Source: Antiquaquibacter metalliresistens (GTDB lineage: Bacteria > Actinomycetota > Actinomycetes > Actinomycetales > Microbacteriaceae). Taken from it: a stretch of DNA of 64,000 nt. Both the position numbers and the translations under genes were made by a program. This document shows, one piece after another, positions 3,226-44,282 of this stretch (position 1 is the first letter of the stretch; each line of letters begins with the position of its first letter). Location of the stretch: contig NZ_JARGEM010000003.1 of NCBI RefSeq assembly GCF_029211225.1, forward strand, positions 1 through 64,000, given 5' to 3'. Below the pieces are notes generated by a model, which was not told the origin of the DNA, ran no database searches, and saw nothing but the letters and a program-made list of their open reading frames with translations.

Positions 3226-4254
3226 ATGATCTCCTGGCTGCGCAAGAAACGCCACAGCATCCCGCTCGCCTTCCTGCTCGCCGGCATCATCGCGGCCATC
3301 GTCTGGGTCGTGAGCCCGTGGCCCGCCGCGCTGATGATCCGCGCCCTGTTCGAGCAGCAGGCCGACAAGACCGTGGAGGAGATGCAGCCCTACGCGCCGA
3401 AGGGCGGTCTGGATGCCACGCTCGACGTGCAGTACGCGTCCGGCACCCCGTTGGCCGCCGGGGCCGACACCACGCTCGACGTCTACTCGCCCTCGGACAG
3501 CACGGGACCGCTGCCCACGCTGATCTGGATCCATGGCGGCGCCTGGATCTCCGGCGACAAGGCGAACGTCGACCCCTACGTCAGGATCATTGCCGCCGAG
3601 GGCTACACGACCGTCGCCCTCAACTACACGGTCGCCCCCGAGGCGGCCTATCCGACCGCCCTGCAGCAGCTCAATCAGGCCCTCGCCTTCCTCGTCGAGC
3701 ACGCGGAGGAGTACCGCATCGACCCGGATCGCCTCGCGATCGCGGGCGACTCCGCGGGCTCCAACCTCACGAGCCAGCTCGCGGTGCTGACGACCAGCCC
3801 CGCGTATGCGACCCAGGTCGGGCTCGAGCCGGCACTGACGCCGGAGCAGCTGCGGGCCGTGGTGCTCAACTGCGGCATCTACGACGTCAGCGGCATCCCG
3901 AACGCGCCGGGTCTCGGCGGTTGGGGCTTCCGCATCGCGCTGTGGGCCTATCTCGGCGAGCGTGACTGGGAGGACAGCCCGGGCGACCACGAGATGTCGA
4001 CGATCGAGTCGGTCACCGCCGACTTCCCGACCACGTGGATCTCCGGGGGCAACGCCGACCCCCTCACCGAGTCGCAGTCCAAGCCGCTGGCGACCAAGCT
4101 CGAAGGCCTCGGCGTGGATGTCACGACCGTCTTCTACCCCGCAGACGAGACGCCATCCCTGCCCCACGAGTACCAGTTCCACCTGGACTTCGACCAGGCG
4201 CGGGTGGCGTTGGACTCGACGCTCGACTTCCTGGGCAACCAGCTCAAGCGTTAG
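3226..4254 (+). CDS. Membrane-anchored alpha/beta hydrolase (family IV esterase type)
   Basis: The 342-residue protein has an N-terminal transmembrane anchor (about residues 10-30) and an alpha/beta-hydrolase domain. The oxyanion-hole motif HGGAW is near residue 103 and the nucleophile elbow GDSAGSN near residue 175. The catalytic acid is probably in the WISGGNADPLT region, and the catalytic His is in LPHEYQFHLD near the C-terminus. This is the hormone-sensitive-lipase/esterase layout, active on short acyl esters; the natural substrate is unknown. The start is supported by TAAGGT seven bases upstream (leaderless pattern). It overlaps the convergent NUDIX gene by 4 bp. Confidence 0.85.
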   Translation: MISWLRKKRHSIPLAFLLAGIIAAIVWVVSPWPAALMIRALFEQQADKTVEEMQPYAPKGGLDATLDVQYASGTPLAAGADTTLDVYSPSDSTGPLPTLIWIHGGAWISGDKANVDPYVRIIAAEGYTTVALNYTVAPEAAYPTALQQLNQALAFLVEHAEEYRIDPDRLAIAGDSAGSNLTSQLAVLTTSPAYATQVGLEPALTPEQLRAVVLNCGIYDVSGIPNAPGLGGWGFRIALWAYLGERDWEDSPGDHEMSTIESVTADFPTTWISGGNADPLTESQSKPLATKLEGLGVDVTTVFYPADETPSLPHEYQFHLDFDQARVALDSTLDFLGNQLKR

Positions 4255-4700
4255 CCGCCGGCGAGCCGGGCGAGCACCGCTCGCTGTCCCTTCACGAGCT
4301 TCTCGCGCGCCTCATCGAGCCCGAACCAGGCGATGCGGTCGAGTTCCGGAAACGACTGCATGCGGCCCGACCCTGGAGGCCATTGCGTCTCGAACACGCC
4401 CGGTTCGAACGCCGCGAGATCGGGGTCGCCCTCGAGGGCGAACACCGTGATCGTCTTGCCGCTCGAGTAGGTGACCGAGCCGAGGGGCTCCAGGTCGCCC
4501 TGCGGCGGCGCGAAGCCGAGCTCTTCGGTGAACTCGCGCACCGCCGCCGCGGCGGCCGGCTCACCGGGCAGCAGGAGGCCCTTCGGGATCGACCAGGCCG
4601 CGGCATCCTTGCGACTCCAGAACGGACCGCCCATGTGGCCGAGCAGCACCTCGCTGCGGCCGAGACGGTGCAGCAGGATGCCCGCGCTCGACTCAGGCAG
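4251..4700 (-). CDS. NUDIX hydrolase, probable CTG start
   Basis: A complete Nudix box is present: G, five residues, E, seven residues, then REFTEELGF. The enzyme should therefore bind Mg2+ and cleave a nucleoside-diphosphate-linked substrate. WSIPKG precedes the box, as in Ap4A-hydrolase-like members. The first ATG/GTG in frame (GTG 4649) would begin inside the first beta strand and remove PESSAGILLHRLGRSE. A CTG at 4700 gives the complete domain (149 aa) and has GGAG six bases upstream. It sits 3 bases before the TGA of the preceding DUF1761 gene, so translational coupling is likely. The non-ATG start is an inference. Confidence 0.85.
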   Translation of the reverse strand: MPESSAGILLHRLGRSEVLLGHMGGPFWSRKDAAAWSIPKGLLLPGEPAAAAAVREFTEELGFAPPQGDLEPLGSVTYSSGKTITVFALEGDPDLAAFEPGVFETQWPPGSGRMQSFPELDRIAWFGLDEAREKLVKGQRAVLARLAGG

Positions 4701-42262: not shown

Positions 42263-42475
42263 ATGAGTGAAACGACACTGACCGGGCAGACCTGGGTGGC
42301 TTTCGGCTCCAACGGCGCCGTCGGATCCATCCACCGCACGAGCGAGGGATTCACCTTCAAGCGGCTCGGCGATGATGCGTTCCGCGGCACCTTCGACACG
42401 CTCGACGGGGCCAAGGGCGCGCTCCACGCCGCGTTGCCTGCCGGTTCCGACTGGCCGGATTTCCGCGAGCACTAG
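42263..42475 (+). CDS. Small protein of unknown function (70 aa)
   Basis: The sequence (WVAFGSNGAVGSIHRTSEGF, ending DWPDFREH) has a predicted beta-sheet face and no recognised family. TAGCGT seven bases upstream supports the start. Its last codons are inside the 98-bp repeat that is duplicated downstream of the island, so a fragment of this gene (FREH and stop) also exists near 43586. Confidence 0.65.
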   Translation: MSETTLTGQTWVAFGSNGAVGSIHRTSEGFTFKRLGDDAFRGTFDTLDGAKGALHAALPAGSDWPDFREH

Positions 42476-42552
42476 GTCTGCTCCACAACCGACACCGACG
42501 GCGCCGCTCCTCCCCAGAACCGGGGGAGGACGGCGCCGTCGTCGTGTGTGCT
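42455..42552. repeat. Left 98-bp direct repeat of a small island
   Basis: Bases 42455-42552 are identical to 43580-43677 except at one position (T42460 versus G43585). The repeat spans the last codons of the preceding gene and the complete terminator hairpin. It bounds a 1,027-bp insert that holds two minus-strand genes. Confidence 0.93.
42496..42541 (+). terminator. Strong hairpin terminator, left copy
   Basis: CGACGGCGCCG (42496-42506) pairs perfectly with CGGCGCCGTCG (42531-42541), and CTCCTCCCC pairs with GGGGGAGGA inside it around a short loop. No T-run follows, as is common for actinobacterial terminators. Confidence 0.8.
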
Positions 42553-42736
42553 ACGCGCCTCGGCGCCTCAATAGGACGGTCACGATGAAGCCCACTGCTG
42601 CGACCGCGGCCGTAATGAACAGGGTGGTGACGTTCATCGTGATCAGATACGCGAGTACGCCGACCAGCGCGAGTGCTGCGGCGACGAGGAGGCCCACCAG
42701 CCAGGGGCGTCGATTGGCCAGGTTTCCTTCAGTCAT
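42551..42736 (-). CDS. Small two-helix membrane protein in the island
   Basis: A 61-residue protein that is almost all membrane: WLVGLLVAAALALVGVLAYL and TLFITAAVAAVGFIVTVLL, with a terminal RRRGA. It could be a small immunity or accessory protein for the secreted product encoded next to it, but that is a guess from size, order and topology. GGAGG lies about six bases before the ATG. Its TAG stop touches the repeat boundary. Confidence 0.7.
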   Translation of the reverse strand: MTEGNLANRRPWLVGLLVAAALALVGVLAYLITMNVTTLFITAAVAAVGFIVTVLLRRRGA

Positions 42737-42777
42737 GAGTTTCCTCCAAGGTGCGACATCGACTACTGAGCGAGGTC

Positions 42778-43407
42778 TTATCCACCGGACTTCTCCGTGA
42801 CCCCGTTCCAGAGCCCCTTGATCTGAACCCACTGGTTGACACACGAGGGGGCAGGGATGTCATTGCAGAAGAGACCCATAGTGTACGACGTGTGACCACC
42901 GTTGGGCCGGCCGCCTTCCGTTGAATAGGCGTCCCAGTCGTTGACCACGCCGTTGAAATACCACCCGAATCCCGAACCCGTAGTTATGTAGTCACTGATC
43001 GCGGAGACAGACAGGCCAGTGGCATTGAATGACTTGTGCATCGTGATCCGGGTAAGTGCACCGCCGAACGCGTTGTACCAGATCTGGTCGTGCGAGGTCG
43101 AGACTACTGCGAGAGGCACAGGTTCCCCCTGAGCTTCCAGGGTTGCCGCTTCGTCCTCCGTCGGCTGACGTGTCGACTGCTCGTACTGTTGTTCAGTCGT
43201 GACTGGTATTGACTCGACGAGGCCAGCGTCCCACGCTGCGCGCGCCCATGTCTCGTCAACTCCGAGTGCCATGGCTGCGGATACGAGTTCTTCCTCGGTC
43301 CACCCGTTCACCGCTGCATCGTCTGCGGCGGCGGGCAGTGCCGGAATTGCGACAAGCACGACGCCAACCACGATCGACGCCAGAGCTTTCTGCTTTCTCG
43401 ATCCCAT
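42778..43407 (-). CDS. Secreted protein of unknown function in the island
   Basis: The 209-residue product has a clean Sec signal (SIVVGVVLVAIPALPAAADD). A middle region (WTEEELVSAAMALGVDETWA) comes next, then a C-terminal domain rich in aromatic, Gly and Ser residues: ALTRITMHKSFNATGLSVSA, GWYFNGVVNDWDAYS, and LFCNDIPAPSC with the only Cys pair. It does not match a family I know. AAGGGAG lies eight bases upstream. Base composition is visibly lower in G+C than flanking genes, which fits acquisition together with the repeats. Confidence 0.75.
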   Translation of the reverse strand: MGSRKQKALASIVVGVVLVAIPALPAAADDAAVNGWTEEELVSAAMALGVDETWARAAWDAGLVESIPVTTEQQYEQSTRQPTEDEAATLEAQGEPVPLAVVSTSHDQIWYNAFGGALTRITMHKSFNATGLSVSAISDYITTGSGFGWYFNGVVNDWDAYSTEGGRPNGGHTSYTMGLFCNDIPAPSCVNQWVQIKGLWNGVTEKSGG

Positions 43408-43579
43408 AAGGCGATCTCCCTTCTCTTCGTGTGATGTTTCCTATGGAAAGGCTCACAGGTGCGCCACCCCGTGTTCAGTCGTGACAAGTGACGACTGTCG
43501 CGATGGCGAGATTCGACGTAGCGTTGAAAGGCTGGGCTATTCAGACCAATCGGAATCGCGGTACCCAGTGCGACGCACC

Positions 43580-43677
43580 CCGGAGTTCCGCGAGCACTAG
43601 GTCTGCTCCACAACCGACACCGACGGCGCCGCTCCTCCCCAGAACCGGGGGAGGACGGCGCCGTCGTCGTGTGTGCT
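43580..43677. repeat. Right 98-bp direct repeat of the island
   Basis: The second copy (97 of 98 bases identical to 42455-42552) includes the tail FREH-stop of the small gene without the rest of it, plus the terminator. Removing one repeat and the insert would join msrA - small gene - terminator directly to the ssb leader. Confidence 0.93.
43621..43666 (+). terminator. Strong hairpin terminator, right copy
   Basis: Identical hairpin to 42496-42541. It is followed about 30 bp later by another inverted pair (GGATCCCGGG near 43697 and CCCGGGGTCC near 43729, one mismatch), so the leader of ssb contains two successive hairpins. Confidence 0.78.
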
Positions 43678-43784
43678 GTCCACACTGGTCGAACGGATCC
43701 CGGGGCGGCTTCCCGGCACGAGTGCCGCACCCGGGGTCCGACCTTTCGACCACGCAGATCCTCGACCAGCCAGGGAGCCAGCTC

Positions 43785-44282
43785 ATGTCCGACACCATCA
43801 CCCTCACCGGCATCGTGGCCACCGAACCGCGCCACCTCGTCACTAAGGAGGGACTGCCGATCACTTCGTTCCGGCTCGCCTCCGCGCAACGGCGTTTCGA
43901 TCGCGCGCAGGAACGCTGGATCGATGCCGACACCAACTGGTACACGATCACCACCTTCCGGCAGTTGGCGATCAACGCGGCGGGCTCCCTCCTCAAGGGC
44001 GAGCGCGTGATCGTGACCGGCCGTCTGCGCATCCGCGAGTGGGAGAGCGGGGAGCGCACCGGCGTCAACGTGGACATCGAGGCGGATGCGATCGGCCACG
44101 ACCTGCTGTGGGGCACCTCGAAGTTCACCCGCAGCATCGCCTCGACCGCGAAGGCGGCCGATGCCGCCGCCGAAGCCGCGACCGGCCAGACCGAGTCCCA
44201 GCCGAGCGAGGCGACGGAGTCCGCCGTGGCCTCCGAACGTTCCGCTCCGTACGACGAACCGGTCGCCGCACTGCCGTACTGA
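43785..44282 (+). CDS. ssb: Single-stranded DNA-binding protein (divergent paralogue)
   Basis: The 165-residue protein has an N-terminal OB fold (ITLTGIVATEPRHLVTKEG, WYTITTFRQLAINAAGSLLK, RVIVTGRLRIREWESGERTG). The C-terminus is Ala/Glu/Ser-rich and ends VAALPY instead of the usual acidic DDDIPF-type tip. It is therefore probably a second, specialised SSB rather than the replication SSB. GGGAG lies about eight bases before the ATG. Confidence 0.9.
   Translation: MSDTITLTGIVATEPRHLVTKEGLPITSFRLASAQRRFDRAQERWIDADTNWYTITTFRQLAINAAGSLLKGERVIVTGRLRIREWESGERTGVNVDIEADAIGHDLLWGTSKFTRSIASTAKAADAAAEAATGQTESQPSEATESAVASERSAPYDEPVAALPY

What the first reader, a model, noticed from the sequence alone, without database searches (positions are those of the whole stretch)
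42455..43677. About 1-kb island bounded by 98-bp direct repeats with 97/98 identity
The repeats include the last codons of a small gene and a whole terminator hairpin. Copy 2 contains only the gene tail, so the island appears inserted at, or duplicated around, the terminator upstream of ssb. The insert has lower G+C and two genes of minus orientation with strong Shine-Dalgarno sequences, unlike the leaderless neighbours. No integrase or transposase is inside, so entry by recombination across a shared terminator or by an integrase in trans is inferred.
Basis: partly seen in the sequence, partly recalled or inferred. Interest (0 to 1): 0.75.

Follow-up and report, generated by a model that had tools for sequence, protein, structure and literature searches.

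The report
Gene cassette with duplicated insertion site
In a bacterium related to Salinibacterium, a small foreign-looking two-gene piece of DNA sits in front of the gene for the single-stranded DNA-binding protein, flanked by two near-identical copies of about 100 bases of the host's own sequence, which looks like a duplication made when the piece was inserted without a transposase of its own.

Summary
Confirmed: 42455-42552 and 43580-43677 are direct repeats, 97 of 98 bases identical. They bracket 1027 bp of foreign-looking DNA with two minus-strand genes; none of 630 windows of that size is as low in G+C. All 17 genus relatives in which the upstream small gene was found have ssb next to it with no insert (gap 167-281 bp); 9 genus genomes gave no match. 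Joining the outer flanks through copy 2 restores that arrangement. An insertion that duplicated about 98 bp of host sequence is thus well supported; entry by a shared terminator or by an integrase in trans is not. No third copy was found in the genome. A second island, in another genus at the same interval, has an unrelated 104-bp repeat (93%) and other cargo. This fits "insertion with long target duplication", described for Helicobacter pylori restriction-modification genes (passages in PMC1643837, PMC3031569; primary paper not held). Most likely mechanism, inferred: fragment capture at a staggered break, fill-in, end joining; Ku is encoded in both genomes. Cargo function is unknown. In passing: an uncatalogued hairpin upstream of ssb.

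The parts
42263..42475 (+). small conserved gene, 70 aa, upstream partner of ssb
   Evidence: homologues in 131 of 398 family genomes, own included
42455..42552 (+). repeat copy 1: last six codons of the small gene, stop, spacer, hairpin; carries the codon GAT (Asp)
   Evidence: 16 of 17 genus relatives have Glu and one Ala at this codon
42496..42541 (.). hairpin in copy 1, likely terminator between convergent genes (no T run, not scored by the terminator scan)
42553..43579 (.). unique insert, 1027 bp, G+C 0.597
42551..42736 (-). 61-aa protein with two hydrophobic stretches (by eye); its TAG stop is built from one insert base (42553) and two repeat bases (42551-42552)
42778..43407 (-). 209-aa protein with signal-like N-terminus (by eye), helical part and beta-rich C-terminal part; no family over a curated cut-off
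43408..43579 (-). upstream region of the 209-aa gene, probably its promoter (inferred)
   Evidence: no sigma-70-type match found
43580..43677 (+). repeat copy 2: displaced gene tail with the codon GAG (Glu), spacer, hairpin; continues into the ssb upstream region
43621..43666 (.). hairpin in copy 2
43691..43741 (+). conserved hairpin upstream of ssb, left intact by the insertion (side observation)
43785..44282 (+). ssb, single-stranded DNA-binding protein
   Evidence: PF00436 E 1.9e-17

Best explanation
A 1027-bp fragment of foreign DNA carrying a gene for a probably secreted protein and a gene for a small membrane protein was inserted between the small gene and ssb, and the insertion duplicated about 98 bp of host sequence (shown by comparison with relatives). 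This is the pattern called insertion with long target duplication. The most likely mechanism is inferred, not shown (about 0.35 on its own): two nicks or a staggered break about 100 bp apart, capture of a linear fragment, fill-in of the long overhangs and end joining by Ku and its ligase, which leaves one host copy on each side. Copy 2, on the ssb side, keeps the Glu codon usual in relatives; the copy now read by the small gene differs by one base. The repeats should now make the cassette deletable by homologous recombination (inferred). The cargo may be an effector with its membrane partner (weak inference).
For: Near-identical direct repeats at both ends. Empty sites in 17 of 17 genus relatives in which the small gene was found. 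Outer flanks joined through copy 2 align end to end with the four relatives used, whereas the copy 1 side departs from them at the junction. The insert is compositionally foreign and its larger gene is sporadic: 2 of 398 family genomes. The repeat's spacer has no match at E 0.01 in the 17 genus relatives, so the second copy was probably made in this species or a very close one. The stop codon of the 61-aa gene straddles the left junction, as expected of a captured fragment rather than an element with its own ends. No recombinase family listed for the cargo; no inverted repeat of 12 or more joining the two ends of the insert. Independent second case with the same topology and similar length: L051, 97 of 104 columns identical, from the end of the upstream gene to the first codons of ssb, with no direct repeat in the same-genus sites L050, L052 and L069. 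Ku found in both genomes.
Against: No strain-level empty site. Ku is only permissive. A 100-bp duplication needs very long overhangs; I know of no bacterial demonstration (recall). Both cases fall in the same interval, which random capture does not predict, although the second was found by looking there, and the neighbouring ssb-to-ABC interval also varies (16 of 93 above 880 bp). The spacer is not wholly private: one locus of another genus, L118, is 76% identical over 68 positions. A gene tail plus hairpin is also a usual type of integrase site (recall). Two other inserts at the interval have no repeats.
Confidence: 0.55

Rival explanations
1. Site-specific integration of a non-autonomous element: the 98-bp copies are attL and attR at a gene 3' end, moved by a tyrosine integrase in trans.
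For: Repeat lies at a gene 3' end with a strong hairpin. Seven Phage_integrase-domain matches in the genome, six over the cut-off. The gene tail is restored by copy 1, and the copy attached to the gene body is the one with the base not seen in the 17 genus relatives.
Against: No integrase in the island and no third copy found in the genome. The spacer has no match in the 17 genus relatives, so attP would have to match a nearly private sequence over 98 bp. The parallel island has an unrelated repeat that ends inside ssb.
Confidence: 0.15
2. Homologous integration: a circular or conspecific DNA molecule already carrying the 98-bp host segment integrated by a single crossover, or an unequal crossover with later loss of other sequence left the insert between two copies.
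For: Gives the same product; the single base difference could mark a second allele. A circle integrating at a homologous flanking repeat is the model discussed for transposed Arabidopsis genes in PMC2869330 (passages).
Against: Needs an earlier event that joined the cargo to the host segment. No such molecule was found: the 209-aa protein and the insert DNA had no match among plasmids, the 209-aa protein and the whole island none among phages, and no relative of the protein was found in IMG/VR by pattern search.
Confidence: 0.2
3. Vertical locus: both genes were ancestral here and the hairpin region was duplicated later.
For: Would also give two copies.
Against: The 17 genus relatives with the small gene lack the genes at this place; in the family sample only one 34%-identical homologue of the 209-aa protein was found outside the own genome.
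Confidence: 0.03
4. Assembly artefact: a separate molecule sharing the 98 bp was joined wrongly.
For: The genome is in 34 contigs; reads are not available.
Against: The second case has 7 differences between its copies, which a wrong join at a shared sequence does not predict; in the window the copies differ by one base.
Confidence: 0.05

Closest known systems
Insertion with long target duplication (Nobusato et al. 2000, Helicobacter pylori)
   Same: Genes inserted with a long direct duplication of the target, found by comparing related genomes (passages of citing papers PMC1643837, PMC3031569, PMC3154945, PMC4978471).
   Different: In the passages read the cases centre on restriction-modification genes; here the cargo is a secreted and membrane protein pair in Microbacteriaceae, and DUF4760 in the second case. 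The primary paper is not held, so its repeat lengths and non-restriction cases, if any, were not seen.
CIME-type or satellite islands with attL and attR but no integrase (recalled)
   Same: Small cargo between direct repeats at a gene 3' end.
   Different: No third copy of the repeat in the genome, and the second island's repeat is unrelated.
Tandem duplication by fill-in of overhangs and end joining in human and mouse cells (PMC8355091, abstract and section list seen)
   Same: Proposed chemistry: complementary 3' overhangs, fill-in and end joining leave a duplication.
   Different: Uses Pol alpha-primase and the CST complex in animal cells; about tandem duplications, not captured foreign inserts.
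IS captured in a break during a large duplication in Pseudomonas fluorescens SBW25 (PMC11708052, passages)
   Same: A DNA piece sits between two copies of a duplicated host segment; the authors propose insertion into a break.
   Different: The duplicated segment is about 60 kb and the piece is a known IS.

Membership tests
Insertion with long target duplication | long direct repeats derived from the target flank the insert | tested here: met
   98 bp, 97 identical; flanks joined through copy 2 match four relatives
Insertion with long target duplication | empty site with one copy in related genomes | tested here: met
   17 of 17 genus relatives in which the small gene was found; genus level only, no conspecific held
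Insertion with long target duplication | no transposase or integrase and no terminal inverted repeats in the insert | tested here: met
   (inverted repeats of 12 or more)
Insertion with long target duplication | restriction-modification cargo (called frequent in the passages read, not taken here as defining) | tested here: not met
   no such family listed for the two proteins
Integrase-dependent island or CIME | recombinase gene, or a related element with the same att core in the genome | tested here: not met
   none in the island; no third copy of the repeat found
Integrase-dependent island or CIME | precise excision between the repeats | not testable with these tools
   needs an experiment
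Bacteriocin with immunity protein (for the cargo) | known bacteriocin domain and growth inhibition | tested here: inconclusive
End-joining capture | Ku present in the host | tested here: met
   PF02735 over cut-off in G000 and G1178; LigD was not searched

The most novel reading that the evidence does not exclude
Microbacteriaceae have a so far undescribed route of gene-cassette mobility that inserts one or two genes (0.6-1.0 kb) with a target duplication of about 100 bp and no dedicated recombinase in the cassette, acting repeatedly beside ssb, possibly because single-stranded or hairpin DNA there is open to nicking.
Probability: 0.12. Interest if true: 0.75.

Novelty: new member of a known kind. 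Interest (0 to 1): 0.4.

Why it matters
How single genes enter bacterial chromosomes without transposases is poorly understood. Two cassettes with different cargo and repeats of 98 and about 104 bp at one conserved interval give a testable example of insertion with long target duplication in Actinobacteria, with cargo other than the restriction-modification genes named in the passages read.

Tried and rejected
Relatives of the 98-bp repeat by DNA: none in 26 other genus genomes. The 209-aa protein had no match in plasmids or phages; the insert DNA none in plasmids and the whole island none in phages. Pattern searches found no relative of the protein in viral contigs (with the single sequence, with alignment A1) or in GTDB contigs.

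Profile searches of the order sample (3 of 396 genomes, own included) and phylum sample (3 of 396, own included) added only weak partial hits. L031 (162 aa) shares the motif G-W..G...Y...G.H...G.F (by eye) and was used as a third row for folding, but its kinship is uncertain.

Families: weak matches below curated cut-offs or without one were set aside: best TIGR02396 E 0.039 and phrog_20698 E 0.016 for the 209-aa protein, NF045951 E 0.0054 for the 61-aa protein.

Hotspot idea: 17 of 123 small-ssb gaps exceed 300 bp, but the neighbouring ssb-to-ABC interval varies similarly (16 of 93 above 880 bp), so no hotspot is claimed. Inserts without direct repeats at the same interval: L067 (HSDR_N-like protein, just below its cut-off) and L098 (trypsin-like protein). 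An extra small gene is present in the L050, L052 and L069 group; L113 has an extra minus-strand ORF. In the survey scan only L051 and L070, the same MAG, had direct repeats.

Other repeats of the scan: own 100211/101143 are palindromic intergenic repeats (83.8%) around a membrane-protein gene; the G1178 pair lies within two clpP-like genes.

Integron cassette: the repeat was looked at by eye for attC core sites, none seen; no tool test. Rows dropped: small-gene matches of four genomes that were weak, partial or near contig ends (G138, G092, G098, G289) were not fetched for the survey; L024-L032, L054, L081 and L179 were left out of it as not being small-ssb sites; 14 of 161 loci had no ssb in the stretch held.

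Full report
What was checked. In 464 kb of the same contig only one other pair passed a scan for direct repeats of at least 35 bp and 80% at 150-8000 bp spacing, and it is 83.8% identical. The assembly holds no third copy. Chance is excluded.

Anatomy. Copy 1 starts within the tail of a 70-aa gene (42263-42475), passes its stop and a spacer and contains a very stable hairpin. The hairpin lacks a T run and was not scored by the terminator scan. Then come 1027 bp of unique DNA with two minus-strand genes: a 209-aa protein with a signal-like start and a 61-aa protein with two hydrophobic stretches (both features read by eye). Copy 2 then leads into the region upstream of ssb. The stop codon of the 61-aa gene is made of one insert base and two repeat bases, so the junction lies right at its end. 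None of 630 windows of the insert's size in the 64 kb is as low in G+C. Twelve of the 17 genus relatives have a sequence-identical named record; 8 of those 12 titles say Salinibacterium, the others Leifsonia, Rhodoglobus or unnamed actinobacteria.

Empty sites. The small gene was found in 18 of 27 genus genomes, own genome included. In all 17 others ssb follows after 167-281 bp with no insert; the remaining 9 were not tested. A wider survey found the small gene in 131 of 398 family genomes. Of 161 loci examined, 147 had ssb downstream; these give 123 distinct sites, of which 106 have a gap of at most 300 bp. When the window's outer flanks are joined through copy 2, the product aligns colinearly with the four relatives used, whereas the copy 1 side departs at the junction. 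At the one variable base copy 2 has the codon for Glu seen in 16 of 17 genus relatives (one has Ala); copy 1 has Asp. Across the family Asp is seen in 11 of 123 sites, so this base alone proves no direction.

Cargo. The 209-aa protein has no Pfam or NCBIfam match over a cut-off, only weak PHROG matches (best E 0.016) and no PADLOC match at E 0.01. It has a relative at 34% identity in one other genome of 398 in the family, where an ORF of 83 aa that looks like a membrane protein follows it in the same order; the membrane proteins themselves are not significantly alike. It was found in 1 of 16 genomes of that second genus. Two structure models (mean pLDDT 68.8 and 72.4) show an N-terminal helical part and a beta-rich part without a convincing match. 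A secreted effector with a membrane partner is a guess.

A second, independent case. In L051 (MAG RYN_99) the same interval holds an island of other content. Repeats at 3520-3622 and 4221-4324 are identical at 97 of 104 alignment columns and run from the last codons of the upstream gene to the first codons of ssb. In the left copy the ssb start codon is lost, as expected of a dead copy. The gene between them is a DUF4760 protein (E 1.8e-12). Same-genus sites L050, L052 and L069 (identities of loci) have gaps of 415-416 bp at this interval, without the island and without direct repeats. This repeat is unrelated in sequence to the window's (by eye). In 420 kb of that contig the only other pair found lies in clpP-like genes. 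Two further inserts at the interval, in L067 and L098, have no direct repeats. Because the neighbouring interval is about as variable, I do not claim a hotspot.

Explanation. A duplication of about 100 bp of host sequence on both sides, no recombinase in the cargo, no shared sequence between the two cases and an insert edge that lies at the end of a gene together favour capture of a fragment at a break with long staggered ends, filled in and joined. The spacer part of the repeat has no match at E 0.01 in the 17 genus relatives, but five other family loci match in part, best L118 with 76% over 68 positions. Ku is encoded in both genomes, which permits but does not show this; LigD was not searched. 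An integrase in trans is less likely for the reasons given under rivals, although seven integrase-domain matches, six over the cut-off, exist in the genome. Homologous integration of a molecule that already carried the host segment gives the same product and cannot be excluded.

Comparison with what is known. Passages of PMC1643837 and PMC3031569 describe insertion with long target duplication as a pattern seen on comparing Helicobacter pylori genomes, frequently with restriction-modification genes, and cite Nobusato et al. 2000, which is not held; a later survey by the same group is not held either. I therefore file the event under that known kind, with different cargo and host. A search for the term gave 19 papers, one for long target site duplication with bacterial genome 5, and one for Salinibacterium with genomic island and direct repeats none. 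Passages of six papers were read and the abstract of one more; the rest were seen as listings only. In what was seen no Actinobacterial case appeared.

Side result. Between copy 2 and ssb lies a hairpin (43691-43741) whose loop CCGGCACGA is largely kept while both stem arms change. The loop motif was found upstream of ssb in 60 of 123 distinct sites by a pattern search, so loop constancy is partly by selection. All 48 sequences that I aligned (window plus 47 of those 60) fold into a hairpin with 12-21 pairs around the loop. Own arms pair at -35.4 kcal/mol on average against -23.3 for permuted arms, best of 2000 permutations -25.5; the own partner is the best of all in 28 of 48, and in 17 of 19 when arms more than 60% alike are thinned. 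A pair count on 38 distinct model-aligned rows gives 13 of 16 pairs with double changes, 0 of 500 shuffles as high; that alignment is fitted to the model and includes one match (L231) inside a Fic-like gene. Folding of the plain alignment gave no pairs for all 48 and 10 pairs, 6 with double changes, for a subset of 19. No Rfam family matched there at E up to 5. In 884 kb of two genomes only the window site scored below E 0.1. A search of 327 order genomes with strict filters, which lose weak matches, found only the own site and L231. This may deserve a study of its own.

Noticed in passing
window 43691-43741 (+) and the corresponding site upstream of ssb in 60 of 123 distinct family sites: Hairpin of 12-21 pairs with conserved loop CCGGCACGA and covarying arms, 45-100 nt before ssb; no Rfam match. 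Possibly the 5' stem-loop of the ssb mRNA or a protein-binding site. In L113 an extra ORF lies between hairpin and ssb.
   Followed up: partly
L051 3520-4324 (L070 and L081 are the same MAG): Second island at the small gene-ssb interval with 104-bp direct repeats at 93% and a DUF4760 gene.
   Followed up: yes
L067 and L098, small gene-ssb gap: Accessory minus-strand genes at the same interval: an HSDR_N-like protein (240 aa, just below the Pfam cut-off) and a trypsin-like protein (406 aa), without direct repeats.
   Followed up: partly
own contig C23 100211-100284 and 101143-101215: Near-perfect palindromic intergenic repeats (83.8% alike) on both sides of a membrane-protein gene between a trigger-factor-like gene and a clpP-like gene; a 12-base piece recurs at 177249 (gene names by eye).
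   Followed up: no
window 43190-43203 and 43472-43485: 14-bp exact repeat TGTTCAGTCGTGAC inside the 209-aa gene and in its upstream region; the only two on the + strand of the window.
   Followed up: no
L037 and L040 (MAG RM56_bin.064): Two diverged copies of the small gene-ssb region near the ends of two contigs of one bin, perhaps strain variants.
   Followed up: no
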